A stretch of DNA of 64,000 nucleotides from Xanthobacter flavus (GTDB taxonomy: Bacteria; Pseudomonadota; Alphaproteobacteria; Rhizobiales; Xanthobacteraceae). The notes under the pieces were generated by a model. The model was not told the origin of the DNA and did not search any database. It saw nothing but the letters and a program-made list of their open reading frames with translations. This document shows, in pieces, positions 337-13,663 of this stretch (positions are counted from its first letter, which is position 1; each line of letters begins with the position of its first letter). The DNA lies in assembly GCF_017875275.1 (NCBI RefSeq), contig NZ_JAGGML010000001.1:2811001-2875000 (forward strand). The letters are read 5' to 3'. The translations under genes were made by a program, and so were the position numbers.

Positions 337-733
337 TGGCCGAACTGGCTTCAAAACCAACGTTGCAGAGCAGCGCATCCCGGGTCGCGTGATCCTCGAC
401 GCGCGCCGGCAGAAGCGACACCTGCCCCGGATCAGTCCCGCCGATGTAGCCCATGAAAATGGCCGCCTCAGTAACGGGGCGGTTCAGAGCGACCTTCACC
501 TGCCGCCCAACTGCGGACATTTCTCTCAGACCGGGTGGCTGTTCCACCGGGTCTTTCGAGGCGTCGGAACCTTGGGTGAAAATAAAGAGGCGCCAATACG
601 CCGACTTGGGGAAGACGTCGCTGTTCTCCGAAAATGCTGCCGACAGCACTCTCGGAGCGCCGGCTTGAATAGGCCTGGCTAATACTGGTAATTCAGCGAA
701 ACATGAACACGCTCTATCGCCATTGGCCGCCAA
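320..733 (-). CDS. Doubtful hypothetical ORF in the 337-713 gap
   Basis: A 137-codon minus-strand frame fills the otherwise gene-free stretch 337-713. Its codons look coding-like (mostly G/C third positions; plausible soft sequence around VALNRPVTEAAIFMGYIGG), but I recognise no family. It overlaps the ends of both neighbours (17 and 20 nt). Composition is less GC-rich than around it, so this may be a decayed gene or a chance ORF. There is no convincing Shine-Dalgarno sequence at the Met. Confidence 0.25.
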   Translation of the reverse strand: MAANGDRACSCFAELPVLARPIQAGAPRVLSAAFSENSDVFPKSAYWRLFIFTQGSDASKDPVEQPPGLREMSAVGRQVKVALNRPVTEAAIFMGYIGGTDPGQVSLLPARVEDHATRDALLCNVGFEASSAISIPA

Positions 734-1433
734 GGATGGCTGTCAGCTCCTGTCCGGCGGCAAGCAGAACGGGGGACATGATCGCGATCTGAGCGGGCGT
801 GAAACGGGTGCGCGGGCCCGAGATCGTCAACGCCCCCGCAAGAGCGATGCCGCCGGAAAAAACCGGCACCGAGATCGCCGCTGTTTCCGTGTCCCGCTCC
901 CCCTGAGAGACCAAGGGCAGATTTGCGAGCAGCGCCCGGCGCTCCGCCACGTCCCGGGAGCGCGAGAAAGCCGTCAGCACATGCCCGGCGGCGCCCTTGT
1001 CGAGGGCAAGCACGTCGCCCTCGCGGATGTGGTCTCGGATGGGCTGATTGGAATCTTCCCGGAACAGGCAGACCCGCACCGGCCCGTCGCGATGGAAGAA
1101 CGAGGCGCTCTCTCCCGTCTCCCGCACCAGCTCGCGCAGGATGGGGCGGACGTGCCGGTCGAGCCTGAAACTGCGCTGATAGAGGCTGCCGAGTCGCATT
1201 ACCTCAAAGCCCAGCGCGTAGGTCTTGTCCGGCATCCTGACTAGGCATCCTGCGCGCTCCAGGGACACGGCAAGGCGCAAGAGGGTGCTCTTGTAGAAGC
1301 CCGTCCGCTCGGAAAGCTCGTGCAGGCTGAGCGCCGTGTCGCCATCCCGGAACGCCCCCAGGATGCGGAAGGCGCGGTCCACCGCCTCCACTCCGCCCGC
1401 GGACTTCGCGTCCTTCTCCCCGTCTGAAGACAT
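714..1433 (-). CDS. IclR-family transcriptional regulator
   Basis: About 239 residues, the usual IclR length. An N-terminal winged helix (AVDRAFRILGAF...LSLHELSERTGFYKSTLLRLAVSLERAGCLVR) is followed by the IclR effector domain (LRELVRETGESASFFHRDG ... DKGAAGHVLTAF ... ISVPVFSGG.LAGALTISGP). The gene is divergent from the aldehyde dehydrogenase operon and is its likely regulator. IclR proteins bind short palindromes and respond to small organic acids. The start is uncertain. ATG at 1433 is preceded directly by a run of 11 G on the coding strand. A GTG at 1481 would add 16 residues, including a poly-Gly stretch encoded by that run. I prefer 1433 because the conserved domain begins soon after it. 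Confidence 0.88.
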   Translation of the reverse strand: MSSDGEKDAKSAGGVEAVDRAFRILGAFRDGDTALSLHELSERTGFYKSTLLRLAVSLERAGCLVRMPDKTYALGFEVMRLGSLYQRSFRLDRHVRPILRELVRETGESASFFHRDGPVRVCLFREDSNQPIRDHIREGDVLALDKGAAGHVLTAFSRSRDVAERRALLANLPLVSQGERDTETAAISVPVFSGGIALAGALTISGPRTRFTPAQIAIMSPVLLAAGQELTAILGGQWR

Positions 1434-1434
1434 G

Positions 1435-1445
1435 CCCCCCCCCCC
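1435..1445. repeat. Homopolymer of 11 C (G11 on the IclR coding strand)
   Basis: Eleven consecutive C on the + strand lie one base upstream of the preferred ATG of the IclR gene. In the longer reading they encode part of the N-terminus. Such tracts are prone to slippage. Here a length change would alter either ribosome binding or the frame between the GTG at 1481 and the rest of the protein. Confidence 0.8.
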
Positions 1446-1474
1446 GTCCATGCCGACGCACGCCCGGGCGGCGG

Positions 1475-1501
1475 TTGACACGCCCGGCTTGTGGCGATAG
1501 T
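1475..1501 (+). promoter_or_regulatory. Candidate promoter of the aldehyde dehydrogenase operon
   Basis: A perfect TTGACA (1475-1480) is followed after 15 bases by GATAGT (1496-1501), a 4/6 match to the -10 consensus. The palindromic operator begins at the -10, which would suit repression. The short spacer is a weakness. Confidence 0.35.
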
Positions 1502-1535
1502 TCTACTAGAAAGAAACTAGTTCTGTCTAGCAGAA
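1501..1535. promoter_or_regulatory. Compound palindromic operator (likely IclR site)
   Basis: TTCTACTAGA (1501-1510) and TCTAGCAGAA (1526-1535) form an inverted repeat matching at 9 of 10 positions. A perfect palindrome AACTAGTT (1515-1522) sits between them, so CTAG recurs three times at ~10 bp spacing. It lies between the divergent IclR regulator and its presumed target operon, just upstream of the AGGGAGG ribosome site at 1541-1547. Confidence 0.6.
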
Positions 1536-1552: not shown

Positions 1553-3031
1553 GTGGAGCGCTATCAGCTCTTCATCGACGGCACATGGTGTGATCCGGCG
1601 TCCGGCGCGTGGTTCGAGACCAGCGAGCCCTTCTCGGGCGAGGCCTGGGCGCTGATCCCCCGCGGCAGCGCCGCCGATGCCGACCGCGCCGTCGAGGCCG
1701 CCCACCGCGCCTTCCTCTCGCCGGAATGGTCCTCGCTCACCGCCACCCAGCGCGGCGCGCTGCTGCGCAAGCTCGCCGGGCTGATCGAGGAGAATGTGGA
1801 CCTGCTCGGCAGGATCGAGCAGCGCGACAACGGCAAGCTCATGGCCGAGGTCGCGGGGCAGGTCCGCAACGTGGCGCAGTGGTTCCACTATTATGCGGGG
1901 CTCGCCGACAAGGTCGGCGGCGACGTGGTGCCGATCAACAAGGCAGACGTCTTCAACTATACGAAGCTCGAGCCGCTGGGCGTGGTGGTGGCCATCACGC
2001 CATGGAATTCTCCCCTCGCGCTCACCACCTGGAAGATGGCGCCCGCCCTGGCTGCGGGAAACACCATCGTCATCAAGCCCTCGGAATACACCTCCGCCTC
2101 CCTACTGGAGCTGGCGAAGCTGGCGGAACAGGCGGGCTTTCCGAAGGGCGTCGTGAATGTTGTGACCGGCTTCGGCCCCGAAGTGGGCGAGCCCCTGGTC
2201 CGCCACCCCCTCACCGCCAAGGTCGCCTTCACCGGCGGCGACATCGGCGGGCAGAAGGTGAACGAGGCGGCCGCGCCCGGCCTGAAGAAGGTGACGCTCG
2301 AACTCGGCGGCAAGTCGCCCAACATCGTGTTCGACGATGCCGACCTGGAGCAGGCGGTGAAGGGGGCGGTGGCCGGCGTGTTCGGGGCCTCCGGCCAGAC
2401 CTGCATGGCGGGCTCCCGCCTGCTGCTGCAGGAGAGCATCCACGACGCCTTCCTCGCCCGCCTGATCGAGGTGGTGAGGGACGCGAAGATCGGCGATCCC
2501 GCGTTGATGGAGACCCAGGTCGGTCCCATCGCCACCCGCGCGCAGTACGAGAAGATCCTGCGCATGATCGAGATGGGCAAGGAGGATGGCGCGACCCTCG
2601 CGCTCGGCGGCTATGCCCTGTCCGGCCCCGACTACGGCCAGGGGCAGTTCGTGGCGCCCACCATCTTCACCGACGTGCGCAACGACATGCGCATCGCGCA
2701 GCAGGAAGTGTTCGGCCCCGTCGTCTGCGTGCTGAAGTTCAAGGACGAGGACGAGGCGCTGGCCATCGCCAATGACGTGCCATTCGGACTCGCCGCCGGC
2801 GTGTGGACCAAGGACCTGCACCGCGCCCTGTGGTGCGTCGACCGCCTGAAGGCGGGCACCGTGTGGGTGAACAACTATCGCTCCACCAGCTTCGCCACCC
2901 CCTTCGGCGGCTACAAGCGCTCCGGCCTCGGCCGCGAGGGCGGCGTGGAGGCGATCAAGGAATATCTGCAGACCAAGAGCGTGTGGATCACCACCAAACC
3001 AAACCGCTCCAACCCCTTCATCCTGGGCTGA
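1553..3031 (+). CDS. NAD(P)-dependent aldehyde dehydrogenase
   Basis: 492 residues, the full length of the ALDH superfamily. Visible residues: oxyanion Asn152 in ITPWNSPL, the nucleotide loop FTGGDIGG near 227, general base Glu250 in LELGGKSPN, and catalytic Cys284 in GQTCMAGSR. It oxidises an aldehyde to the acid. The substrate cannot be read from sequence; the nearest-looking groups are betaine-aldehyde/semialdehyde-type enzymes. The GTG start is chosen because AGGGAGG lies 5 bases upstream and MERYQLFIDGTW is the standard N-terminus. First gene of a five-gene operon, 8 bp before the next gene. Cytosolic. Confidence 0.92.
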   Translation: MERYQLFIDGTWCDPASGAWFETSEPFSGEAWALIPRGSAADADRAVEAAHRAFLSPEWSSLTATQRGALLRKLAGLIEENVDLLGRIEQRDNGKLMAEVAGQVRNVAQWFHYYAGLADKVGGDVVPINKADVFNYTKLEPLGVVVAITPWNSPLALTTWKMAPALAAGNTIVIKPSEYTSASLLELAKLAEQAGFPKGVVNVVTGFGPEVGEPLVRHPLTAKVAFTGGDIGGQKVNEAAAPGLKKVTLELGGKSPNIVFDDADLEQAVKGAVAGVFGASGQTCMAGSRLLLQESIHDAFLARLIEVVRDAKIGDPALMETQVGPIATRAQYEKILRMIEMGKEDGATLALGGYALSGPDYGQGQFVAPTIFTDVRNDMRIAQQEVFGPVVCVLKFKDEDEALAIANDVPFGLAAGVWTKDLHRALWCVDRLKAGTVWVNNYRSTSFATPFGGYKRSGLGREGGVEAIKEYLQTKSVWITTKPNRSNPFILG

Positions 3032-3039
3032 GGCGCGCC

Positions 3040-3882
3040 GTGGCATCCTCTCCCGATCCCGGCCAGTGGTGGCGCACCGCCATCATCGACATCGCGCCCG
3101 GCACCATCCGTGTGCGGGGCTACGCCATCGAAGACCTCATCGGCGCCGTCTCCTTTCCGGAGATGATCTGGCTGATGCTGCGCGGCGACCTGCCGAGCGC
3201 CGATCAAGCGGCGCTGCTCGGCGCGGTGCTTGTGGCGGCGGTGGACCATGGCCCGCAGGCGCCCTCCATCGCCATCGCCCGCATGGCCATGACCTGCGGC
3301 GTGGGCGTGAACAACGCCATGGCGTCGGCCGTGAACGCGCTGGGCGATGTCCATGGCGGCGCCGGCCAGCAATGCATGGAGCTGTACGCCGCCGTCGATG
3401 GCCGGGCCGGACACGGCATCGCCCTCAATGCCGCCGCCGGTGCCGAGATCGGCGCCCGCCTGCTGCGGCGCGAGCATGTGCCGGGCTTCGGCCATCGCTT
3501 TCATCCGGTGGACCCGCGCGCCGGACGCCTGCTGTCGCTGGTGGATGATGCCGCCTCGCGCGGCGCCGTCGGGGGCCGCTTCGCCGCCATCGGCCGCGCG
3601 GTGGAGGAGGCCCTCGCCGCCGCCAAGGGCAAGCGCCTGCCCATGAATATCGACGGGGCGACCGCCGTGGTCCTGTCGGAACTTGGCTTCGCGCCGGACG
3701 AGGGGCGCGGGCTGTTCATCCTTTCCCGCTCGGTGGGCATCCTCGCCCATGCCATGGAGCAGAAGGCGCAGGGCGGCCGCATCAAGGGGCCGATGCCGCC
3801 GGGGATTGCCTACACCTACGACGGAGCGGAGCCGCGTGCGCTTCCCCGCGCCACCGCCGCGGCGGAAGGGACTGCGCCATGA
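3040..3882 (+). CDS. Short citrate-synthase-fold protein (citryl-CoA lyase-like)
   Basis: About 280 residues, against ~430 for citrate synthase, retaining the C-terminal catalytic part. The three catalytic positions are intact: His105 in DVHGG, His152 in GFGHRFHPVDPRA and Asp205 in MNIDG, with the substrate Arg160. Proteins of this size are generally called citryl-CoA lyase. They make or cleave a citryl-CoA-like thioester to acetyl-CoA plus a 2-oxoacid. A CoA-transferase gene overlaps its stop by ATGA, which fits a CoA-thioester substrate made in the same operon. The start is GTG 3040, 8 bp after the ALDH stop; a longer in-frame extension upstream lies inside the ALDH gene and is rejected. 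The actual substrate is unknown. Confidence 0.82.
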   Translation: MASSPDPGQWWRTAIIDIAPGTIRVRGYAIEDLIGAVSFPEMIWLMLRGDLPSADQAALLGAVLVAAVDHGPQAPSIAIARMAMTCGVGVNNAMASAVNALGDVHGGAGQQCMELYAAVDGRAGHGIALNAAAGAEIGARLLRREHVPGFGHRFHPVDPRAGRLLSLVDDAASRGAVGGRFAAIGRAVEEALAAAKGKRLPMNIDGATAVVLSELGFAPDEGRGLFILSRSVGILAHAMEQKAQGGRIKGPMPPGIAYTYDGAEPRALPRATAAAEGTAP

Positions 3883-5087
3883 TCCGTGAGAAGCGCCTGC
3901 CCCTTGCCGGGATCCGCGTGCTCGACTTCGGGCACACGGTCATGGGGCCATCCTGCGCCATGATCCTCGCCGATCTCGGCGCCGACGTGCTGAAGATCGA
4001 GCCCGCTCCAGGCGGAGACCCCACCCGCCAGCTCCAGGGCTTCGGCATGGGCTATTTCGGCTATTTCAACCGCAACAAGCGCTCGCTGGCGGTGGACCTG
4101 AAGAGCGATGCGGGCCGCGAGATCGCCCACCGCCTCATCAAGGGCGCCGACGTGGTGGTGGAAAACTTCGCCCCCGGCACCATGGGCCGTCTCGGCCTCG
4201 ATGCGGAGGCGGCCACCGCCCTCAACCCCCGGCTCGTCTATGCCAGCCTGAAGGGGTTCCTCGATGGTCCCTACGCCCATCGCCTCGCCCTCGACGAGGT
4301 GGTGCAGATGATGTCCGGCCTCGCCTACATGACCGGGCCGAGCGGCCGGCCCCTGCGGGCGGGGACATCGGTGGTGGATATCGCCGGCGGCATGTTCGCC
4401 GTCATCGCCATCCTCGCCGCGCTGCGCGAGCGCGAGGCGACGGGTGAGGGACAGGTGGTGGAGGCGGCGCTGTTCGAGACCACCGTCTTCCTCATGGGCC
4501 AGCATCTCGCCTATGCGGCGCAGACCAACGAGCCCATCCCGCCCATGCCCGAGCGCGTCTCGGCCTGGGCTGTGTACGAGCCCTTTGCGCTGAAAGACGG
4601 GCGACAGATCTTCGTCGGTATCACCACCGATGGGCACTGGCAGCGCTTCTGCGCGCTGGTCGGCTGGCAGGACATGCTGGCCGACGCCAGCCTCGCCACC
4701 AATAACGGCCGGGTCGCCGCCCGCGGACGCATCCTGCCGTGTTTTGCCTGCCTGTTCGGGTCGCTGACACAGGACGAGGCGGTGGCGCTGTGTGAGAAGG
4801 CGCGCATTCCCTTCGCGCCCATCGCCCGGCCGGAGGATCTGTTCCACGATCCCCATCTTGCCGCGACCGGCGGGCTGATGCCCACGCGCCTGCCCAACGG
4901 CGTGGAAACGCGCCTGCCGCGCCTGCCCATCCATATGGCCGAGGCGGACCTCTCGCTGCGCAGCGATCCGCCGGAGGTGGGAGCCGACACGGCCGACGTG
5001 CTCGAAGCCCTCGGCTACGCGCCGGACACCATCGCCGCCCTGGCGCGCGACGGCGTGGTGGCCATGGGCGTCACCGCGTCTCGCTGA
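3879..5087 (+). CDS. CaiB/BaiF-family (class III) CoA-transferase
   Basis: 402 residues, full family length. The fold signature is complete: LPLAGIRVLDFGHTVMGPSCAMILADLGADVLKIE, then NRNKRSLAVDLK, VVENFAPGTMGRLGLD and the TG..GRP..AGTSVVDIAGG segment. Asp167 in that segment aligns with the catalytic Asp169 of formyl-CoA transferase, which carries the acyl-anhydride intermediate. It moves CoA from a donor such as succinyl-CoA to a carboxylate. Its ATG overlaps the stop of the citryl-CoA lyase-like gene, so the two are translationally coupled. Together they look like activation followed by C-C cleavage. Confidence 0.9.
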   Translation: MIREKRLPLAGIRVLDFGHTVMGPSCAMILADLGADVLKIEPAPGGDPTRQLQGFGMGYFGYFNRNKRSLAVDLKSDAGREIAHRLIKGADVVVENFAPGTMGRLGLDAEAATALNPRLVYASLKGFLDGPYAHRLALDEVVQMMSGLAYMTGPSGRPLRAGTSVVDIAGGMFAVIAILAALREREATGEGQVVEAALFETTVFLMGQHLAYAAQTNEPIPPMPERVSAWAVYEPFALKDGRQIFVGITTDGHWQRFCALVGWQDMLADASLATNNGRVAARGRILPCFACLFGSLTQDEAVALCEKARIPFAPIARPEDLFHDPHLAATGGLMPTRLPNGVETRLPRLPIHMAEADLSLRSDPPEVGADTADVLEALGYAPDTIAALARDGVVAMGVTASR

Positions 5088-5123
5088 AGCCGAACAACGA
5101 CAATCAAACTCCGGGAGGAGAAC

Positions 5124-6605
5124 ATGCCAACGACAGCAAAAGGCCCGGACCTCCTTGTGGTGGGCTGCGGCATCGCCGGGCTCAGCGCGGCGGTGTCCGC
5201 ATTGGAAGGCGGACTTTCGGTGACGCTGCTCGAGCGCGCGCCGGAAGAGGAGTTCGGCGGCAACACGCGCTGGACCGAAGCCTACATGCGCATGAAGAAC
5301 GACAGCGAGATCTCCGACGATTTCGAGGAGCATTTCGCCGCGAATGCCGGCCCCAATCTCGATCCCAACGTGCTGACCGACGTGGCCCGCGCCTATGCGG
5401 ACTGGCCGGCGGTGGTGAAGGCCCATCCCTTCCCGGACCCCGAGGTCATCTCCACCTTTGCCGCCGAGGTGCCCCCCACCATCGCCTGGCTGAAGGGCTT
5501 CGGCCTGAAGTTCGGCCCCCAGCCCATCTACCTGCTCACCCAGAACACCACGCGCATCGCCGCGCAGGGGGGCGGCCTCGCGCTCATCGAGCGGCTGATG
5601 GCCGAGGCGAAGCGGCTCGGCGCCGAGGTGCGTTTCCGCACCACCGCCACCGCTTTGCTGCGCGATGCTGACGGGCGCGTGGCGGGCGTTGCCGTGACCG
5701 ACCCGGACGGGCGGCGGGAAGAAATCCGCGCAGGCACCACCGTGTTCGCCTCTGGCGGCTTCCAGGGCAACCCGGAGATGATGACGCGCTACATCGGCCA
5801 GAAGGCGGCCAACATCCGCCCCGTGGCCCGCGGCGGCTACTACAATCGCGGCGAGGGCATCCGCATGATGCTGGAGGCGGGCGCCGCGCCTGCCGGCGAG
5901 TTCGGCTCCTACCACGCCGAGCCGGTGGATCCCCGCTCGCTCCAGGCCGAGGCGGTGGTGTTCATCTATCCCTATGGCGTGCTCGTGAACCGCGACGGAC
6001 GGCGCTTCCTCGACGAGGCGCCCGGCACGGTGGATGCCCATTACGACAATATCGGCCGGGCCATCGCCGACCAGCCGGGCGGCATCTCGTGGGTCATCTT
6101 CGACGCCAAGGTGGAGGACATCCCGCGCTGGCGCACCTCCATCCGCTCGGATGTTCCGGCGGTGGAGGCGCCCACGCTGGAAGCACTGGTGGAAAAGCTG
6201 GGGCTGCCGGGCGAGACCCTCGACACCATCGCCGCCTTCAATGCCGCCTGTCCCGACGAGGGCGGTGACTTCACGCCCTTCGCCATCGACCACCGGGCGA
6301 CCACGGGGCTTGAGCCCCGCAAGTCGCACTGGTGCCGGCGGATCGAGACGGCGCCGTTCCGCGCCTATCCCATCATCTCCACCGCGTGCTTCACCTTCGG
6401 CGGCGTGAAGGTGAACGCCTCGGCCCAGGTGCTGGATGGCGATGGAAAGATCATCCCCGGCCTCTACGCCGCGGGCGAGACCGTCGGTCTCTATCACCAG
6501 GTCTATACGGGCTCGACCTCCGTGCTGCGCGGCGCCGTGTTCGGCCGTCTCGCCGGCCTCGATGCCGCGGCCCGCCTCGCACCACGCCTGAAGACGGCGC
6601 TCTGA
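5124..6605 (+). CDS. FAD-dependent dehydrogenase, TcuA/fumarate-reductase flavoprotein type
   Basis: 493 residues. An N-terminal dinucleotide fold (LLVVGCGIAGLSAAVSALE) is followed by GGNTRWTEAYMRM and a C-terminal FAD segment, GLYAAGETVGLYHQVYTGSTSVLRGAVFGRLAG. The overall pattern matches FAD-dependent tricarballylate dehydrogenase TcuA and 3-ketosteroid/succinate-dehydrogenase-like enzymes, which remove two hydrogens next to a carboxylate or carbonyl. It has no signal peptide. Strong ribosome site GGGAGG 6-8 bases before the ATG. In this operon it may introduce a double bond into a tricarboxylate-like substrate before or after CoA activation; that role is inferred. Confidence 0.82.
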   Translation: MPTTAKGPDLLVVGCGIAGLSAAVSALEGGLSVTLLERAPEEEFGGNTRWTEAYMRMKNDSEISDDFEEHFAANAGPNLDPNVLTDVARAYADWPAVVKAHPFPDPEVISTFAAEVPPTIAWLKGFGLKFGPQPIYLLTQNTTRIAAQGGGLALIERLMAEAKRLGAEVRFRTTATALLRDADGRVAGVAVTDPDGRREEIRAGTTVFASGGFQGNPEMMTRYIGQKAANIRPVARGGYYNRGEGIRMMLEAGAAPAGEFGSYHAEPVDPRSLQAEAVVFIYPYGVLVNRDGRRFLDEAPGTVDAHYDNIGRAIADQPGGISWVIFDAKVEDIPRWRTSIRSDVPAVEAPTLEALVEKLGLPGETLDTIAAFNAACPDEGGDFTPFAIDHRATTGLEPRKSHWCRRIETAPFRAYPIISTACFTFGGVKVNASAQVLDGDGKIIPGLYAAGETVGLYHQVYTGSTSVLRGAVFGRLAGLDAAARLAPRLKTAL

Positions 6606-6630
6606 ACCAGATACAAGAGGGAGGACAACA

Positions 6631-7845
6631 ATGAAAAAGACGATGCTGGCGGCCGCATGCGCGGTGGCCATTGCCCTGCCGCTCGCCGGCGCCCGGGCTC
6701 AGACCTATTCGGACGGCGTGGTGAAGATCGGCATCCTGACAGACCTGTCCGGCCAGCTGTCCGACTCCACCGGCGCCGGCTCCATCCTTGCTGCGGAAAT
6801 GGCGGTGGCGGACTTCGGACCCATCGAGGGCGCGAAGGTGGAGATCATCTCCGCCGACCACCAGAACAAGGCCGACATCGGCGCCGCGACCGCCCGCAAG
6901 TGGTACGAGGTGGACGGCGTCGACGCCATCATGGACGTGCCGAATTCCGCCGTGGCGCTGGCGGTGCAGCAGATCACGCGGGAGAAGGATCGCATCGCGA
7001 TCTTCTCCTCTCCCGCCTCCTCGGACCTGACCGGCAAGGCCTGTTCGCCGAACGGCATCCACTGGACCTATGACACCTACGCGCTGGCCCATGTGACCGG
7101 TGATGCCGTGGTGGCCTCCGGCCTGAAGAACTGGTTCTTCCTGACCTCCGACTATGCCTTCGGCCACGCGCTGGAGCGCGACACCAGCGCGGTGGTCCAG
7201 ACGGCCGGCGGCAAGGTCTACGGTTCGGTGCGGATGCCGGCCAATGCGCCGGATTTCTCGTCCTTCCTGCTCCAGGCCCAAAGCTCGAAGGCCGAGGTCG
7301 TCGCCCTCGCCACGGCCGGCCTCGACACGCAGAACGCCATCAAGCAGGCCGCCGAGTTTGGCCTTGCGGAATCCGGCAAGACCATCGCGGCGCTCCTCCT
7401 CGCCGAAACGGAGGTCAACGCCCTCGGGCTGAAGGCGACGCAGGGCATCCGCCTGACCGCGCCCTTCTACTGGGACATGAATGACGGCACCCGCGCCTTC
7501 GCCAAGCGCTTCTACGAGAAGCGCAAGGCCATGCCCACCTTCTACCAGGCCGGTGTCTACGGTGCCGTGACGCACTACCTGAAGGCCGTGAAGGCGGCGA
7601 AGACGGATGCGGCCGGGCCTGCGATGGCGAAGATGAAGGAGACGCCCGTCAACGACTTCATGACGAAGGACGGCAAGGTCCGCGAGGACGGCCGCGTCAT
7701 CCGCGACATGTACCTGTTCCAGGTGAAGACGCCGGCGGAGTCCAAGGCGCCATGGGACTATTACAAGCTCGCGGCGACCGTGCCCGGCGACAAGGCCTTC
7801 CGCCCCCTCGCCGAAAGCGAATGCCCGCTGGTGAAGAAGATGTAG
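6631..7845 (+). CDS. ABC-type periplasmic solute-binding protein (branched-chain amino acid type)
   Basis: 404 residues with a Sec signal peptide (MKKTMLAAACAVAIALPLAGARA, cleavage before QT). The mature part is a Peripla_BP_6/Leu-Ile-Val-type protein: VVKIGILTDLSGQLSD, then DHQNKADIGAATARKWYE, then SDYAFGHALERD. No permease or ATPase gene accompanies it, so it must use a transporter encoded elsewhere or act as a sensor. It closes the operon, after a GGGAGG site. A clear paralogue lies at 12425-13663 in another catabolic cluster. Ligand unknown, probably an organic acid related to the operon's substrate. Confidence 0.88.
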   Translation: MKKTMLAAACAVAIALPLAGARAQTYSDGVVKIGILTDLSGQLSDSTGAGSILAAEMAVADFGPIEGAKVEIISADHQNKADIGAATARKWYEVDGVDAIMDVPNSAVALAVQQITREKDRIAIFSSPASSDLTGKACSPNGIHWTYDTYALAHVTGDAVVASGLKNWFFLTSDYAFGHALERDTSAVVQTAGGKVYGSVRMPANAPDFSSFLLQAQSSKAEVVALATAGLDTQNAIKQAAEFGLAESGKTIAALLLAETEVNALGLKATQGIRLTAPFYWDMNDGTRAFAKRFYEKRKAMPTFYQAGVYGAVTHYLKAVKAAKTDAAGPAMAKMKETPVNDFMTKDGKVREDGRVIRDMYLFQVKTPAESKAPWDYYKLAATVPGDKAFRPLAESECPLVKKM

Positions 7846-8437: not shown

Positions 8438-9655
8438 ATGCGCCAGGGCTGGAGATGGTTCGGGCCGGACGCCCCGGTCACGTTGGACGAGGTGCGCCAG
8501 GTTGGCGCGACCGACGTCGTATCCGCCCTTCATGAGGTGCCGATCGGCGAGGTGTGGACCCGAGGAATGGTCGAGGCGCGGCGCAACCTGATCGAGACGA
8601 CGCCGCCCGGTCGCGCCCCGTTGTCCTGGTCGGTGGTGGAGAGCATCCCGATTCCCGACGCCATCAAGCGCCGCGGCGCCGAAGCGTCCGCCGAGATCGA
8701 GGCGTGGATTGCCAGCCTCGAAAGCGTCGGGCAGGCCGGCATCAAGATCGTCTGCTACAATTTCATGCCCGTGGTGGACTGGTGCCGCACCGAGCTTGAT
8801 TACGTCACCGACACCGGCGCGACGGCGATGCGTTTCGAATTCGAGGCCTTTGCCGCCTTCGATCTGCATATCCTTCAAAGGCCGGGCGCCGAGCGCGACT
8901 ACAGCGAACAAGAACGCCTGCAGGCCCGCGCGCGTTATGAGGCGATGGACGCTGCCGCCGAGGCGGAAATCGCGCGCAACATCGCCAGCGCGTTGCCCGG
9001 CTCGACCACTGAATCGATGACCATTCCCGGGTTTCGCGAGAAACTGAAAGACTATCGCGGCATCGATGCCGCGCGGCTGCGCCGAAATCTCGTCGAATTT
9101 CTTGCAGCCGTCGTGCCCGCCGCCGAGAGCTTCGGGGTCAAGCTGACGCTTCACCCCGATGATCCGCCGCGCCCCCTGTTCGGGCTGCCGCGCATCGCAT
9201 CGACGGAAGACGACTATGCCGCCCTGTTCGATGCGGTCCCCTCGCCCGTCAACGGCATGTGCTTCTGCACCGGGTCCCTGGGCGCCCGCGCGGACAACGA
9301 TCTGGAAGGGATGATCCGCCGTTTCGGCCCGCGCATCTATTTTGCCCACCTGCGAAACACGCGCCGCGAGGCCGATCCGCGCAGCTTCCATGAATCCGCG
9401 CATCTCGACGGCGACACCGACATGGTTGGTGTTCTCAAGGGCCTGATACAGGAAGACCTGAAGCGGCCGCCCGGCGAGACCATCGTCTTTCGGCCCGATC
9501 ACGGGCACCGCATGCTCGACGATCTGAGAAAGACCGTGACGCCGGGCTATCCGGCGATCGGGCGCATGCGAGGGCTGGCGGAATTGCGCGGCATTCTGCA
9601 CGCGCTGGGGCACCCCCCGGAGGTCGGTCCGGTTCAGCCTCTCGGCCGGGCGTAG
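8438..9655 (+). CDS. uxuA: Mannonate dehydratase
   Basis: 405 residues, typical for UxuA. Conserved blocks: MRQGWRWFGPDAPVTLDEVRQVGATDVVSALH, GIKIVCYNFMPVVDW, KLTLHPDDPPRPLFGLPRIAS, MCFCTGSLG, IYFAHLRNTRR, FRPDHGHRMLDD. The His, Cys and Asp positions of the metal site are present. It dehydrates D-mannonate to 2-keto-3-deoxygluconate in hexuronate breakdown. Ribosome site GGGAG precedes the ATG. No uxuB, uxaC or kdgK is nearby, so it acts alone here or serves a related sugar acid. Its 3' end overlaps the convergent gene by 22 bp. Confidence 0.92.
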   Translation: MRQGWRWFGPDAPVTLDEVRQVGATDVVSALHEVPIGEVWTRGMVEARRNLIETTPPGRAPLSWSVVESIPIPDAIKRRGAEASAEIEAWIASLESVGQAGIKIVCYNFMPVVDWCRTELDYVTDTGATAMRFEFEAFAAFDLHILQRPGAERDYSEQERLQARARYEAMDAAAEAEIARNIASALPGSTTESMTIPGFREKLKDYRGIDAARLRRNLVEFLAAVVPAAESFGVKLTLHPDDPPRPLFGLPRIASTEDDYAALFDAVPSPVNGMCFCTGSLGARADNDLEGMIRRFGPRIYFAHLRNTRREADPRSFHESAHLDGDTDMVGVLKGLIQEDLKRPPGETIVFRPDHGHRMLDDLRKTVTPGYPAIGRMRGLAELRGILHALGHPPEVGPVQPLGRA

Positions 9656-10287
9656 GTCTTGGCATAGTCCGGTGTTTCGATGCCGGGCCTCAGGTCCTTG
9701 CAGTTCCGAGGGGCGCCGGCGGTGATCCGAAGCGGAATGACGCCCGCCCACAGATCCAGCGCGATGTCGTCGGCGGGGTCCACGACGCCCTTGTCGCGGA
9801 TCTTGGCCGAGGCTTCCTCGATGGGAAATCTCAGGAAGACGGTCGCGTTCAGTTCCTTGGTCTTCGGCGGGCGCACGACGTGGCCGGGCAGGATGTCCTC
9901 GATGAAGGCCGCCACGAGGCGCTCCTTCTCCGCCACGTCCTCAACCACCTCCGCCTTCGCGAAGATCACCACCGAGCGATAGTCCATGCTCATGCCGAAG
10001 CCGGACCTGCCGGCCACGATGGAATCGACCAGCGTGACGGTGATGCACGCCGGCGCCCCGCCCGCGAGGGTGGACAGCAGCTGGTTGCTCTGGCTGCCGT
10101 GGATGTAGACATGGTCCCCCACCCGGATGATCGCGGTGGGAATGACCCGGGGCTCATCGTTCACGCTGACCCCGACATGGGCCACCAGGGCCTCGTCGAT
10201 GATCGCATGGACCACCGCGCGGTCGAACACGCCGCGCTCCGGCCGCCGCCGGATTTTCGTTCGCTCCGTGGGCTGGATCTCGCTCAT
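9634..10287 (-). CDS. Pyridoxamine 5'-phosphate oxidase-family flavoprotein
   Basis: 217 residues from the ATG with AGGAG 7 bases upstream; a 14-residue upstream extension is rejected. The split-barrel FMN fold of the PPOX/nitroreductase-like family is visible: ALVAHVGVSVNDEPRVIPTAIIRVGDHVYIHGSQSNQLL, then CITVTLVDSIVAGRSGFGMSMDYRSVVIFAKAEVVED. The family binds FMN, F420 or haem and reduces or oxidises small molecules; the substrate is unknown. It is followed upstream by an Ldh2-type oxidoreductase in the same direction, separated by a strong hairpin, so the two are probably separate transcripts. Confidence 0.82.
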   Translation of the reverse strand: MSEIQPTERTKIRRRPERGVFDRAVVHAIIDEALVAHVGVSVNDEPRVIPTAIIRVGDHVYIHGSQSNQLLSTLAGGAPACITVTLVDSIVAGRSGFGMSMDYRSVVIFAKAEVVEDVAEKERLVAAFIEDILPGHVVRPPKTKELNATVFLRFPIEEASAKIRDKGVVDPADDIALDLWAGVIPLRITAGAPRNCKDLRPGIETPDYAKTYARPRG

Positions 10288-10312
10288 CTCAAGCTCCTGA
10301 GAGCACGCGCCG

Positions 10313-10340
10313 ATCCGATTGCCTCGCAATCAGATCGGAT
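10313..10340. promoter_or_regulatory. Nested inverted repeats upstream of the PPOX gene
   Basis: ATCCGAT (10313-10319) pairs with ATCGGAT (10334-10340), and GATTGC (10317-10322) with GCAATC (10326-10331). They lie 26 bp upstream of the PPOX start, in a position suited to an operator or leader hairpin. Confidence 0.4.
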
Positions 10341-10376
10341 AACGCGTTCTCTATCATTAAGTTAGCGGGCGATTCA

Positions 10377-10403
10377 CCGACCGGATTGTTTCAATCCGGT
10401 CGG
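10377..10403 (-). terminator. Perfect 12-bp hairpin after the Ldh2-type gene
   Basis: CCGACCGGATTG, loop TTT, and the exact complement, 10 bp beyond the stop of the minus-strand Ldh2 gene. No T tract follows. The style is the same as the hairpin at 7900-7928. Confidence 0.65.
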
Positions 10404-10412
10404 GATCGCGCT

Positions 10413-11498
10413 CTATGCCGATGCGGCGCCGGCGGTGATGTGATCGCCTTCATAGCTGGCGCGTTCTGTCACCTGCCGACCTGCGGCGTAAGCCTCGATG
10501 GAGGCGACGAGCGAGCGGGGCACCATGACGCCTTCGGCCGTGGTGCGCCTGCGCGCCTCATAGCGCCGGCCGGAGGGCAGGCGGGCGCCATCCTGCGCCA
10601 GCAGCCGGGAGAAAAGGGTTTCGGCATGCCGCAGCTGCGCCGCGCGATCACCGCCCGCGACGAATTTCGCCGGGTCGATCGCGATGACCAGCTCGCCGCC
10701 GCAGGGGGCGCCCGTATTGGCCTTGTCGTGCGCGGCCTGCTCGAAGCTGATCTTGTCGCCGAGAAGCGGGCCGGCCAGCAGTTCCACCATCAAGGCGATG
10801 TTGGAGCCCTTGAAGCCGCCGAACGGCAGCTGGGCGCCGAGCAGGGCCTGCTGCGGATCGTTGGTGGGGCGCCCCTCGGTGTCGATGGCCCATCCATCGG
10901 GCAGCGCCTCGCCGTCGCGCAGGCGCAGCTGGATCTCGCCCCGGGCGCTTGCGCTCGACGCCTGGTCGAAAACCATCGGCGGGTTGTCGAGCCGGGGCCA
11001 GGCGAAGGCCATCGGGTTGGTGCCGAACAGAGGCTTCATGCCGCCCGCGGGCGCGACGTAGGGGCTGGAGGAGACGAAGGCGAAGCCGACCAGCCCGCGG
11101 ACCGCCAGCCGCTCCACCTCGGGCCAGAGGGCCGCGACGTTGAGCGCGTTGGTCACGGCGAGGGCGGCGATGCCGAATTCCTTGGCGCGTTCGGCAAGCG
11201 GCGCGTCGCCGGTCTCAAGCGCGAGCGGCGAGAAGGCATAGCCGGCGTCCACCTTGATCACGCTGGGCGACAGCTCGGTCAGGACCGGCTCGATGTCCGG
11301 CGAGGCCTGGCCGGAGCGCAGGCCGTTCACATAGAAGGGCAGGCGGAACAGGCCGTGATGGCGGCACTCGTCGCGCTCGGCCGCCGTGACCGTGTTGGCG
11401 ATGGCGGATGCGTGGTTCTCGGCAAATCCCTGACCGAGCATCGCAGCCTTGGCCGCGGCATGAATCTCTCCCAGCGACATCCGAACGGCATCGGTCAT
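10413..11498 (-). CDS. Ldh2/malate-lactate dehydrogenase-family oxidoreductase (DpkA-like)
   Basis: 361 residues, full length for the NAD(P)-dependent Ldh2 (YlbC/DpkA) fold. Conserved pieces: AERDECRHHGLFRLPFYVNGLRSG, VTNALNVAALWPEVERLA, GGMKPLFGTNPMAFAWPR, and LLGAQLPFGGFKGSNIALMVELL. The last resembles the 'pf.G.KG..l...ve.l' NAD-contact loop. Members reduce 2-oxoacids or cyclic imino acids (delta1-piperideine/pyrroline-2-carboxylate). The imine-reductase reading is favoured by the RDECRHHGLFR segment but not proven. A palindromic operator precedes it. Its neighbours are an XRE-cupin regulator and a solute-binding protein. Confidence 0.83.
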   Translation of the reverse strand: MTDAVRMSLGEIHAAAKAAMLGQGFAENHASAIANTVTAAERDECRHHGLFRLPFYVNGLRSGQASPDIEPVLTELSPSVIKVDAGYAFSPLALETGDAPLAERAKEFGIAALAVTNALNVAALWPEVERLAVRGLVGFAFVSSSPYVAPAGGMKPLFGTNPMAFAWPRLDNPPMVFDQASSASARGEIQLRLRDGEALPDGWAIDTEGRPTNDPQQALLGAQLPFGGFKGSNIALMVELLAGPLLGDKISFEQAAHDKANTGAPCGGELVIAIDPAKFVAGGDRAAQLRHAETLFSRLLAQDGARLPSGRRYEARRRTTAEGVMVPRSLVASIEAYAAGRQVTERASYEGDHITAGAASA

Positions 11499-11554
11499 CG
11501 GTCAATTCCCCTTCACGGCTTCATCGATCCGCGCCCGGAATGGCCAGGCGCAAA

Positions 11555-11588
11555 GTGCATCCTGCACATATTTGCATACGGTGCAAAT
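11555..11588. promoter_or_regulatory. Operator pair upstream of the Ldh2-type gene
   Basis: GTGCATCCTGCAC (11555-11567; arms GTGCA/TGCAC) is followed by ATTTGCA-TACGG-TGCAAAT (11570-11588; perfect 7-bp arms). Both share a TGCA core and lie ~60-90 bp before the Ldh2 start. The adjacent XRE-cupin protein is the obvious candidate binder. Confidence 0.6.
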
Positions 11589-11707
11589 CAATATGCCGGC
11601 GGTGTCTGCTTTTTGCGCCGGTCCGTGTCCTGCCCTGGCCTGTTCCAACGCGCGCGTTACGGCACGTTCTCATTCTCTTGCGAAGCGCGGTCGCCGGCCC
11701 GATTGAA

Positions 11708-12328
11708 TCAATCCGTCCGGGTCGCGCTTTCGGCCTGGTGCTCCACAGCGTGGGACGGCGTGACCACCATCAGCATGCGCGCCGGGCCGGTGCCAACGTT
11801 GCGGCCCATGTGCGGGCGGTCGCCCTTGAGATGCACGCAATCCCCTTCTTCCAGCACGAAGCTGTCGCTTCCGATCTGGAACTCGATCCGGCCCTCGATG
11901 ATGTAGAGCACTTCCTCCCCCTCGTGGGTCAGAAGGCTCACCGAAGACTCGTTCGTGACCGGGAATTCAAGCAGGAAGGTGTTCAGCAGAGGCTCGGGGA
12001 CCGTCGAAGACAAGGAATGGTATTGATAGCCATTCGCTTCCAGAAGCTGGCCGCTCTGCCGGTCCGACTTGCGGAAGATGTTGTAGCCTTTGACGGCCGC
12101 CACGCTTTGGTTTTCTTCAAACAGATCCCGCAGCGGGATATCGACGGATGTGGCGATGGCGATCAGGTTGGCGATGGATGTCGCGGCCTCGCCGCGCTCG
12201 ATCCTTGAGAGGAAGGCCGCCGACAGGCCGCTCTTCTCGCCGAGCTCCTTCAGGGTCATCTTGCGCGCGGACCGCGCCCCGCGGATACGCTGGCCAATCT
12301 GGCGAGCGACAAAGCGTACCTGGTCCAT
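11708..12328 (-). CDS. XRE-family regulator with C-terminal cupin domain
   Basis: 206 residues, standard for HTH-cupin regulators. The helix-turn-helix occupies residues ~10-65 (IGQRIRGARSARKMTLKELGEKSGLSAAFLSRIERGE). The cupin is residues ~110-195 (LLTHEGEEVLYIIEGRIEFQIGSDSFVLEEGDCVHLKGDRPHMGRN), with an Asp-Cys in the loop and His near the usual metal-binding places. Such proteins sense amino acids, polyamines or organic acids. It lies between the binding-protein gene and the Ldh2 gene, all on the same strand. It probably binds the TGCA palindromes at 11555-11588 and possibly the half-site at 13758. Confidence 0.88.
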   Translation of the reverse strand: MDQVRFVARQIGQRIRGARSARKMTLKELGEKSGLSAAFLSRIERGEAATSIANLIAIATSVDIPLRDLFEENQSVAAVKGYNIFRKSDRQSGQLLEANGYQYHSLSSTVPEPLLNTFLLEFPVTNESSVSLLTHEGEEVLYIIEGRIEFQIGSDSFVLEEGDCVHLKGDRPHMGRNVGTGPARMLMVVTPSHAVEHQAESATRTD

Positions 12329-12424
12329 TCCGCCCTCGGATGCTCTCCCTGATGCATGTAGAGAAACTTCAATTCCAGCGCAAGCAGGCCAACGGCGCCA
12401 CCGGGGTGGCGGCGCCGTCTGCGA

Positions 12425-13663
12425 TCAGGATCGCACGAGGGGGCAGGCGCTCTCGGACAGGGGCTGGAAGATCTGGTCGCCCGGGATGGTCTGGATAATC
12501 CTGTAATAGTCCCAGGGACCCTTGGATTCCGAAGGTTTCTTCACCTCGACGAGATACATGTCGTGGACCATGAGGCCATCGGCGCGGACTTTCCCGCCCT
12601 GGCTGAACATGTCATCGACCGGCAGGTCCTTCATTTTCGCCATCACGATCTTTGCATCGTCGGTTCCGGCGGCTTCCACGGCCTTGAGATAGTGCCGCAC
12701 GGCCGAGTAGACGCCGGCCTGCGTCATGGTGGGCATGGCGTTGCGGCGCGCGTAGAACCGCTGGGACCACGCGCGCGTGGCCTCGTTCCGGTCCCAATAG
12801 AAAGCGGTGATGAACCGCAGGCCGTTCGCCTTGTCGAGGCCGAGCGCGTGGATGTCGGTCAGGAAAACCGCCGGCGCCACGAGGGTCTTCTGCTGGTTCA
12901 GGCCGAATTCGGCGGCCTGCTTGATGGCGTTGGCCATGTCGCTGCCGGCGGCGGAGAAGGCGACGACCTTGGCCTTGGAACTCTGCGCCTGAAGGAGAAA
13001 CGAACTCATGTCGGCGGAGTTCAGGGGAAAGCGAACCTCGCCCAGCACCGCGCCGCCGCCTGCCGTCACCGCCTTGCGGATATCGTTCGCGAACGCATGG
13101 CCGAAGGCATAGTCGACGGTGACGAGAAACCAGCTGTCATAGCCCGCGGCCGCCATGATCTTCGCCAGGCCGAAGCCATTGGAATAGCTCGTGTAAACCC
13201 ATTGCGCGGAGGTTTCGGTGCAGGCCTTGCCGGTGAAATCCGAGGAGGCGGCGGTGATGAGGGCGATCTTGTTCAGATCCTTCGCCAGGCTCTGCACGGC
13301 GAAGCCCACGGACGAGTTGGAGAAGTCGGCGATGACGTCCACGCCGTCCTTGGTGAACCACTCCCGCGCCTTGGCGGCGCCGATGTCCGCCTTGTTCTGG
13401 TGATCGGCGAAGACCAGCTCGATCTTCTTGCCGAGGACCGTGCCGCCGAACTCCTCGATGGCCATCCGCGCGGCCTCCACCGAGCCGGGGCCGGCGAGGT
13501 CGGCATAGAGGCCCGACTGATCGTTCAGAATGCCGATCTTCACCGCGTCGCCGCTCACCTGCGGCTCGGCGGCGGCGCAGTTTACCTGCAGCGCAATCGC
13601 TGCCGCGATGGCAAGCCGGGACCACCAGGTGTTTGCTTGTGAGCGGAGCGTGTTCGCGATCAT
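12425..13663 (-). CDS. ABC-type periplasmic solute-binding protein, paralogue of the one at 6631
   Basis: 412 residues from the ATG at 13663, chosen because GGGGA lies 6 bases before it; upstream Mets at 13675 and 13684 are possible. Signal peptide ends at ...VNCAAA before EPQ. It shares long identical stretches with the protein at 6631-7845: DHQNKADIGAA, SSFLLQAQSSKA, NAIKQAAEFGL, and the C-terminal PWDYY...PGD..F.PL.ES.CPLV. The two are therefore a duplicated pair serving different clusters. Again there are no permease or ATPase genes. Ligand unknown. Confidence 0.88.
   Translation of the reverse strand: MIANTLRSQANTWWSRLAIAAAIALQVNCAAAEPQVSGDAVKIGILNDQSGLYADLAGPGSVEAARMAIEEFGGTVLGKKIELVFADHQNKADIGAAKAREWFTKDGVDVIADFSNSSVGFAVQSLAKDLNKIALITAASSDFTGKACTETSAQWVYTSYSNGFGLAKIMAAAGYDSWFLVTVDYAFGHAFANDIRKAVTAGGGAVLGEVRFPLNSADMSSFLLQAQSSKAKVVAFSAAGSDMANAIKQAAEFGLNQQKTLVAPAVFLTDIHALGLDKANGLRFITAFYWDRNEATRAWSQRFYARRNAMPTMTQAGVYSAVRHYLKAVEAAGTDDAKIVMAKMKDLPVDDMFSQGGKVRADGLMVHDMYLVEVKKPSESKGPWDYYRIIQTIPGDQIFQPLSESACPLVRS

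What the first reader, a model, noticed from the sequence alone, without database searches (positions are those of the whole stretch)
1553..7845. Five-gene carboxylate operon: CoA-transferase + mini citryl-CoA lyase + TcuA-like flavin dehydrogenase + ALDH + orphan binding protein
Seen: five tightly spaced genes with ATGA coupling between lyase and CoA-transferase, under a divergent IclR regulator. Known: CaiB/BaiF enzymes activate carboxylates; citrate-synthase-fold lyases split citryl-CoA-type esters into acetyl-CoA and a 2-oxoacid; TcuA-type enzymes dehydrogenate tricarballylate. Inferred: import of a tri- or hydroxy-polycarboxylate, FAD dehydrogenation, CoA transfer, retro-Claisen cleavage, and oxidation of an aldehyde product. 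I know no named pathway with this exact gene set.
Basis: partly seen in the sequence, partly recalled or inferred. Interest (0 to 1): 0.75.

Follow-up and report, generated by a model that had tools for sequence, protein, structure and literature searches.

The report
CoA-driven tricarboxylate-splitting operon, substrate unknown
The five genes look like a real, regulated operon that probably imports an organic acid, attaches coenzyme A to it and splits it with a citrate-synthase-like enzyme; the gene pair at its heart is found in many bacteria, and its substrate is still unknown.

Summary
Confirmed: a divergent IclR gene and five close-set genes (ALDH, short citryl-CoA lyase, class III CoA-transferase with ATGA overlap, TcuA-like flavoenzyme, binding protein). 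The whole set recurs in the same order in 3 of 14 genomes of the genus and six Azospirillum loci, behind paired palindromes.

The core is lyase + CoA-transferase: 92 of 112 lyase loci have a CoA-transferase within 1.5 kb; 109 of 112 have some acyl-CoA-forming enzyme within 9 kb. Of 17 loci with a thiamine enzyme, 13 carry an acylating aldehyde dehydrogenase; the four without it all carry the window-type ALDH plus CoA-transferase (p = 0.002).

The flavoenzyme is below both TcuA cut-offs, and the genome has a stronger tcuA near a tcuB elsewhere. The "orphan" binding protein has a possible permease at 3.57 Mb.

Best reading: an aldehyde-derived tricarboxylate is dehydrogenated, hydrated, CoA-activated and cleaved to acetyl-CoA plus a 2-oxodicarboxylate. 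Activity and substrate are untested.

The parts
714..1481 (-). IclR-family regulator, divergent
   Evidence: 58-63% identical homologue in the same place in six Azospirillum loci, 97% and 90% in two same-genus genomes
1501..1511 (.). palindrome TTCTACTAGAA, possible operator half
   Evidence: perfect arms of 5 here; less regular related sequence in the same place in the same-genus and Azospirillum loci and in front of the CoA-transferase of L106 (compared by eye)
1521..1535 (.). palindrome TTCTGTCTAGCAGAA, possible operator half
   Evidence: identical in the two same-genus copies, TTCTATCTAACAGAA in the six Azospirillum copies
1553..3031 (+). aldehyde dehydrogenase (ordinary, not the acylating SauS type)
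   Evidence: one clade (100/99) with the six ALDHs of thiamine-enzyme loci, best own-genome paralogue 49%
3040..3882 (+). short citrate-synthase-fold lyase, citryl-CoA lyase family NF004864; start GTG 3040 inferred
   Evidence: single match in the genome
3879..5087 (+). class III (CaiB/BaiF) CoA-transferase, subfamily 1
5124..6605 (+). FAD-dependent dehydrogenase, TcuA-like but in a clade of its own
6631..7845 (+). substrate-binding protein of a Liv-type ABC importer
   Evidence: Azospirillum copies L060 and L064 are followed by genes for two ATPases and two permeases of Liv type (read by eye; one ATPase scanned)

Best explanation
A catabolic operon that degrades an imported small polycarboxylate by CoA transfer followed by retro-Claisen cleavage. 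Proposed order: the binding protein delivers the substrate to a LivHMGF permease encoded elsewhere in this genome. The ALDH oxidises an aldehyde form to a saturated tricarboxylate. The FAD enzyme dehydrogenates it to an aconitate-type acid. A housekeeping aconitase hydrates it to a citrate- or homocitrate-type acid. The CoA-transferase moves CoA onto the acetyl arm, probably from succinyl-CoA. The short lyase splits the thioester into acetyl-CoA and a 2-oxodicarboxylate (oxaloacetate or 2-oxoglutarate). The IclR protein controls it through two palindromes. Shown by sequence: gene set, families, conserved residues, conserved co-occurrence, conserved upstream palindromes. Inferred: every reaction, the order of ALDH and FAD steps, the hydration step, the regulation, the permease partner and the substrate.
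For: Lyase: NF004864 416 vs 261 bits; D64, H65, H100, H147, R148, R155, D200, R225, H232, R242 invariant in 102 of 102 (roles recalled from citrate synthase); Foldseek best match 6hxp, TM 0.79 by target. CoA-transferase: Asp139 in 22 of 22 subfamily 1 and 77 of 77 subfamily 2 (a few duplicate contigs included). Coupling: CoA-transferase within 1.5 kb in 92 of 112, 63 of 112 with 60 bp or less between the matched spans. ALDH upstream: of 17 thiamine-enzyme loci, the 4 without the acylating dehydrogenase all have window-type ALDH plus CoA-transferase, against 1 of the 13 with it. L074 holds an acylating dehydrogenase and, by the lyase, a CoA-transferase remnant lacking residues 82-293. Tricarboxylate chemistry: sister loci L061 and L217 have lyase, CoA-transferase 1 and aconitase in a row; L050 and L103 have a PrpF-like isomerase; the FAD clade lies beside PrpF-like genes in 4 of 13 genomes, with a PrpB-like gene in 2 (named in L186 only). 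Import.
Against: No activity is known to me for any of the five proteins. There is no aconitase in the operon, and the six lyase loci with one lack the FAD enzyme, so the two never occur together within 9 kb in my set. If the acid were plain citrate, CoA activation would be wasteful beside a working TCA cycle. The FAD enzyme was found near the lyase only in the nine complete loci, which form one clade of the lyase tree, and none of its 13 other close relatives has a lyase in the stretch fetched. The ALDH argument comes from related but different clusters (thiamine enzyme, CoA-transferase 2); one of the four key loci, L075, is a 6.1-kb contig where an acylating enzyme could lie beyond the end, and the loci are related, so the p-value is only indicative. 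No natural aldehyde precursor is identified.
Confidence: 0.5

Rival explanations
1. One reading: a tricarboxylate is dehydrogenated, activated and cleaved, and the ALDH then oxidises an aldehyde product of the cleavage.
For: Gene content fits. The ALDH also matches the alpha-ketoglutaric semialdehyde dehydrogenase model, though far under its cut-off (420 vs 770 bits).
Against: Citrate-synthase-type cleavage gives an acyl-CoA and a 2-oxoacid, not a simple aldehyde (established chemistry). ALDH + CoA-transferase stand in for an acylating aldehyde dehydrogenase in related loci, which places the ALDH upstream.
Confidence: 0.15
2. A second, specialised route for tricarballylate or aconitate: FAD enzyme = tricarballylate dehydrogenase, then citrate, citryl-CoA and cleavage to acetyl-CoA and oxaloacetate.
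For: FAD enzyme only just under one TcuA cut-off (359 vs 369), and a close relative in L185 passes it (381); aconitase and PrpF-like genes in sister loci; TctA-type genes in 28 and TctC-type in 22 of 112 lyase loci.
Against: The genome's own TcuA passes both cut-offs (715 and 603 bits) and lies 0.8 kb from the only TcuB match. No place for the ALDH.
Confidence: 0.15
3. The lyase runs as a synthase (acetyl-CoA + 2-oxoacid to an alkylcitrate) in a biosynthetic or detoxifying operon.
For: The fold is shared with citrate synthases; some Azospirillum copies carry a second citrate-synthase-like gene in the operon.
Against: A CoA-transferase or acylating enzyme lies within 9 kb in 109 of 112 loci, which fits acyl-CoA consumption; importer genes point to catabolism.
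Confidence: 0.1

Closest known systems
Citryl-CoA lyase of Hydrogenobacter thermophilus (PDB 6hxp)
   Same: Lyase fold and family, active-site residues; same proposed retro-Claisen cleavage
   Different: 31% identity in the fold alignment; here a CoA-transferase gene stands beside it, whereas the Hydrogenobacter route uses a citryl-CoA synthetase (recalled); whether this organism runs a reverse TCA cycle was not tested
Salmonella tcuABC tricarballylate utilisation
   Same: A TcuA-like FAD protein and an importer component in one operon (tcuABC functions seen in passages of PMC10468695)
   Different: FAD enzyme below both TcuA cut-offs; no TcuB gene in the operon; a higher-scoring tcuA near tcuB elsewhere in the genome
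Itaconate degradation (itaconate CoA-transferase, hydratase, citramalyl-CoA lyase)
   Same: Logic: CoA transfer, then lyase cleavage (start of the abstract of PMC12290011, seen in the listing)
   Different: Lyase here is of the citrate-synthase fold; the itaconate lyase is CitE-type by recall; no hydratase gene in the operon
Acylating sulfoacetaldehyde dehydrogenase SauS family
   Same: In sister loci a SauS-like protein seems to do in one step what ALDH + CoA-transferase do here
   Different: Not present in the window; the scanned member (L091) is below the SauS cut-off (455 vs 600), so sulfoacetaldehyde is not inferred

Membership tests
Citryl-CoA lyase (NF004864) | Score over the curated equivalog cut-off | tested here: met
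   416.4 vs 261 bits
Citryl-CoA lyase (NF004864) | Catalytic His/Asp and carboxylate-binding Arg residues kept | tested here: met
   invariant in 102 of 102 lyases; roles of residues recalled
Citryl-CoA lyase (NF004864) | Cleaves citryl-CoA | not testable with these tools
   needs enzyme assay
Class III CoA-transferase | CoA_transf_3 domain and the conserved active-site Asp | tested here: met
   387 bits vs 23.3; Asp139 in 22 of 22 and 77 of 77; that this is the catalytic Asp is recalled, it aligns with an Asp of 10uh
Class III CoA-transferase with a named substrate (succinate-glutarate, formyl-oxalate, mesaconate, carnitine) | Score over a specific equivalog cut-off | tested here: not met
   best 257 vs 750; all 7 matching models are under their cut-offs
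TcuA tricarballylate dehydrogenase | Score over the TcuA equivalog cut-offs | tested here: not met
   359 vs 369 (narrow) and 218 vs 373
TcuA tricarballylate dehydrogenase | TcuB partner beside it | tested here: not met
   the one TcuB match of the genome is at 965478-966575, 0.8 kb from another TcuA
Itaconate (Ict-Ich-Ccl) pathway | CitE-type lyase | tested here: not met
   lyase is citrate-synthase type
Reverse-TCA citrate cleavage (citryl-CoA synthetase + lyase) | Citryl-CoA synthetase genes in the genome | not tested
   the five genes of the operon hold none; the genome was not searched for them

The most novel reading that the evidence does not exclude
The lyase family is the terminal step of an undescribed family of catabolic routes in which an arm of a tertiary hydroxy-carboxylic acid is turned into a CoA thioester and clipped off as acetyl-CoA. 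In the thiamine-enzyme loci this would be a ring-opening, non-aromatic route for quinate/shikimate that resembles inositol breakdown: 3-dehydroquinate to a cyclic diketone, thiamine-dependent ring cleavage to homocitrate semialdehyde, ALDH + CoA-transferase (or one acylating enzyme) to homocitryl-CoA, lyase to acetyl-CoA + 2-oxoglutarate (C7 = C2 + C5). The window operon would be the branch of the same scheme fed by another aldehyde and a flavin dehydrogenase.
Probability: 0.2. Interest if true: 0.8.

Novelty: new variant of a known kind. Interest (0 to 1): 0.55.

Why it matters
Citryl-CoA lyase is known above all from reverse-TCA carbon fixation (recalled). Here relatives of that family sit in what look like heterotrophic operons of many Proteobacteria, some Actinomycetota and single metagenome bins of other phyla, nearly always with a CoA-transferase or an acylating dehydrogenase. 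If the reading holds, calling carbon fixation from this gene alone would mislead in these genomes, and a general way of degrading tertiary hydroxy-acids has been missed. Azospirillum brasilense carries the six-gene block (L064, L065) and can be tested.

Tried and rejected
Tricarballylate as the clear substrate: rejected as the leading choice because a tcuA close to a tcuB exists elsewhere in the genome. Orthologue of the thiamine enzyme elsewhere in the genome: best hit 37%, against 56-86% among the other loci, so none. A dedicated aconitase in this genome: two PF00330 genes, neither at the operon; the one compared with the L061 type is 44% identical. Isonicotinate as source of a tricarballylate semialdehyde: considered from memory, no support, not pursued. 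Fumarate-reductase active-site mapping of the FAD enzyme (by eye): uninformative.

Rows dropped: the tree has 102 distinct lyases; loci whose matched span held a stop, was under 240 residues or repeated another were left out, L066 among them. Duplicate contigs L046/L106, L043/L081 and L216/L061 were counted once. In one search one ALDH (L109) was dropped for a stop; the 204-residue fragment of L129 was not used. L133, counted as having no acyl-CoA-forming enzyme, has a CoA-transferase-like match of 34% about 6.6 kb off, under my threshold; L118, also so counted, has only 1.7 kb on one side.

Literature: searches. Only the top rows of each list were seen (for example 15 of 58, 15 of 65, 8 of 38). 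Among them I noticed no paper on this operon or on the lyase/CoA-transferase pair. I saw listings with the starts of abstracts, and passages of PMC2864759 and PMC10468695. Most subscription papers and all preprints are outside that library, so this is weak evidence of absence.
Full report
OBSERVATION. The lyase and CoA-transferase share ATGA. The lyase frame is open far upstream; the likely start is GTG 3040, 8 bp after the ALDH stop, giving 280 residues. The genome is one 5,354,025-bp contig.

IS THE SET CONSERVED? Yes, but narrowly. In the genus, 3 of 14 genomes, the window's included, have the lyase. In both others the whole block is present: ALDH 97% and 95%, lyase 93% and 89%, CoA-transferase 96% and 94%, FAD 96% and 91%, binding protein 97% and 92%, IclR 97% and 90%. 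Six Azospirillum loci carry the same six genes in the same order at 58-63% (IclR), 84-85% (ALDH), 74-76% (lyase), 74-75% (CoA-transferase), 72-75% (FAD) and 77-78% (binding protein). In the two Azospirillum loci whose downstream frames I read (L060, L064) the operon runs on into genes of Liv type, two ATPases and two permeases, read by eye; in L060 a second citrate-synthase-like gene stands before them. The region before the ALDH holds two palindromes, TTCTACTAGAA (1501-1511) and TTCTGTCTAGCAGAA (1521-1535). By eye, related paired sites, the first less regular, stand in the same place in the two same-genus and the six Azospirillum copies, and before the CoA-transferase of L106. An IclR homologue of 38% or more lies within 9 kb of the lyase in 55 of 112 loci.

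THE CORE MODULE. I collected lyase relatives from 297 genomes of the order and from named genomes (the best 80 of 486 confirmed, so biased to close relatives). After removing three duplicate contigs, 112 loci hold a lyase of at least 50% identity. A CoA-transferase lies within 1.5 kb in 92 of 112, and with 60 bp or less between the matched spans in 63. The CoA-transferases are two distant subfamilies, 25-37% identical to each other and 49-100% within. The window has subfamily 1 (16 of the 92), the others subfamily 2 (76). Of the 20 loci without one at 1.5 kb, 4 have subfamily 1 at 2.7-6.8 kb, 13 have a SauS-like acylating aldehyde dehydrogenase, and 3 (L118, L119, L133) have neither at my thresholds. 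So 109 of 112 lyases have an acyl-CoA-forming enzyme within 9 kb. SauS-like genes occur in 14 loci, and only L107 of these has a CoA-transferase within 1.5 kb.

WHERE THE ALDH ACTS. Seventeen of the 112 loci carry a thiamine-diphosphate enzyme. Thirteen of the 17 have the SauS-like enzyme. The four without it (L066, L071, L075, L121) all have an ALDH 62-67% identical to the window's plus CoA-transferase 2; of the 13 with it only L128 has both, its CoA-transferase 7.2 kb off (Fisher p = 0.0021). Limits: L075 is a 6.1-kb contig, and L084 and L105 are cut short too, so some absences may be contig ends; related loci are not independent. L074 may show the swap in progress: an intact SauS-like gene and, beside the lyase, a CoA-transferase remnant that keeps residues 1-81 and 294-395. 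It is from a metagenome bin, so an assembly fault is possible. The 15 ALDHs that are 61% or more identical to the window's (nine complete blocks, six thiamine-enzyme loci) form one clade (100/99) apart from the other 15 rows of the tree. Those others include ALDHs of lyase loci at 28-42% (L065 second copy, L081, L092, L106, L108, L218) and five own-genome paralogues; no wider sample was used. The window ALDH's best own-genome paralogue is 49%. The simplest reading is that ALDH + CoA-transferase do in two steps what the acylating enzyme does in one: aldehyde to acid to acyl-CoA. That puts the ALDH before the CoA-transferase.

THE LYASE. It passes the NF004864 citryl-CoA lyase cut-off (416 vs 261). 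Positions D64, H65, H100, H147, R148, R155, D200, R225, H232 and R242 are the same in 102 of 102 relatives. From citrate synthase I recall most of these as catalytic or carboxylate-binding, which would suit a product with two carboxylates such as oxaloacetate or 2-oxoglutarate. The AlphaFold model (pLDDT 89.8) matches 6hxp best (TM by target 0.79). In the tree of 102 lyases the window lyase falls in a 29-row clade (99/94) with most of the thiamine-enzyme loci (L058 and L142 fall outside) and with L061 and L217, which have lyase, CoA-transferase 1 and an aconitase in a row.

THE FAD ENZYME. It lies under both TcuA cut-offs (359 vs 369; 218 vs 373). The genome's own TcuA at 967-969 kb scores 715 and 603 and lies 0.8 kb from the genome's one TcuB match. 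A second TcuA-like protein at 3.893 Mb scores 594. In 385 genomes of the class, 74 have a match at E 1e-60 or better; besides the window's genome, 13 have one at 51-58%, and the next listed is 42% or less (only four candidates per genome were scored). None of the 13 fetched stretches contained a lyase match. In 4 of 13 a PrpF-like gene is next to it and in 2 a PrpB-like gene (family named for L186); several stretches were short. This fits a role on a saturated tricarboxylate other than tricarballylate. The distinction from TcuA is not sharp: of the four relatives scanned, L185 passes the cut-off (381) while L059, L188 and L196 do not (357, 363, 364).

IMPORT. The nearest permease to the Azospirillum LivH is at 3,569,801-3,570,673 (76%, next best 41-42%), inside a LivG-LivF-SBP-LivH-LivM cluster 67-75% identical to the Azospirillum subunits. 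That cluster has its own binding protein, 57% identical to the window's. The window protein may share the permease; this is inference.

MECHANISM. Proposed: aldehyde -> (ALDH) saturated tricarboxylate -> (FAD enzyme) aconitate type -> (aconitase) citrate or homocitrate type -> (CoA-transferase) thioester -> (lyase) acetyl-CoA + 2-oxodicarboxylate. The family chemistry of each step is established knowledge; that these genes perform it, and in this order, is not shown. Weak points: no aconitase in the operon, the FAD enzyme and an aconitase never co-occur within 9 kb in my loci, and no natural aldehyde is known to me.

A WIDER HYPOTHESIS. Thirteen of the 17 thiamine-enzyme loci have a 3-dehydroquinase, shikimate-dehydrogenase or xylose-isomerase-like neighbour; none of the 95 others does (p = 7e-14; the probes came from such loci, so the contrast is partly built in, and related loci are not independent). 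Quinate has the same C(OH)(COOH)(CH2-)(CH2-) centre as citrate. An inositol-like ring opening would give homocitrate semialdehyde and, after activation, acetyl-CoA + 2-oxoglutarate. I saw no such route in the listings.

VERDICT. Real operon, interpretation partly right, ALDH probably upstream, TcuA label not met, substrate open. New variant of a known kind.

Noticed in passing
L066, L071, L083, L099, L107, L128, L145 and others (17 loci): Clusters of a thiamine enzyme and the lyase with, in varying mixes, a SauS-like acylating dehydrogenase, 3-dehydroquinase, shikimate dehydrogenase and xylose-isomerase-like genes: a possible non-aromatic quinate/shikimate route.
   Followed up: partly
L074:1405-2055: CoA-transferase remnant lacking the middle of the protein, beside the lyase in a locus that has an intact SauS-like gene.
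   Followed up: yes
L060:15028-16122 and L059:15031-16125: Second citrate-synthase-like gene (364 aa; L059 copy scanned, NF009005) downstream of the binding protein in some Azospirillum operons. In L064 the 116-bp gap to the next gene is too short for it.
   Followed up: no
L185, L186, L188, L189: The FAD-enzyme clade lies beside PrpF-like genes and a large molybdenum-hydroxylase-type protein, in L185 and L186 also a PrpB-like gene: another unnamed tricarboxylate cluster.
   Followed up: partly
L227:8113-9708 and 9715-12661: A second TcuA-like protein of the same genome (594 bits) is followed by two genes that look to me like MmgE/PrpD family (by eye, not scanned).
   Followed up: no
window 8438-9655, 10413-11498: UxuA-type mannonate dehydratase downstream of the operon, and an Ldh_2 dehydrogenase on the other strand; left out of the operon because of the 592-bp gap after the binding protein.
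   Followed up: no
G000:C1:2807895-2809010: Another CaiB-type CoA-transferase gene just left of the window, on the other strand.
   Followed up: no
L050, L061, L092, L106, L217, L218: Aconitase-type genes within 9 kb of the lyase in six loci with CoA-transferase 1.
   Followed up: partly
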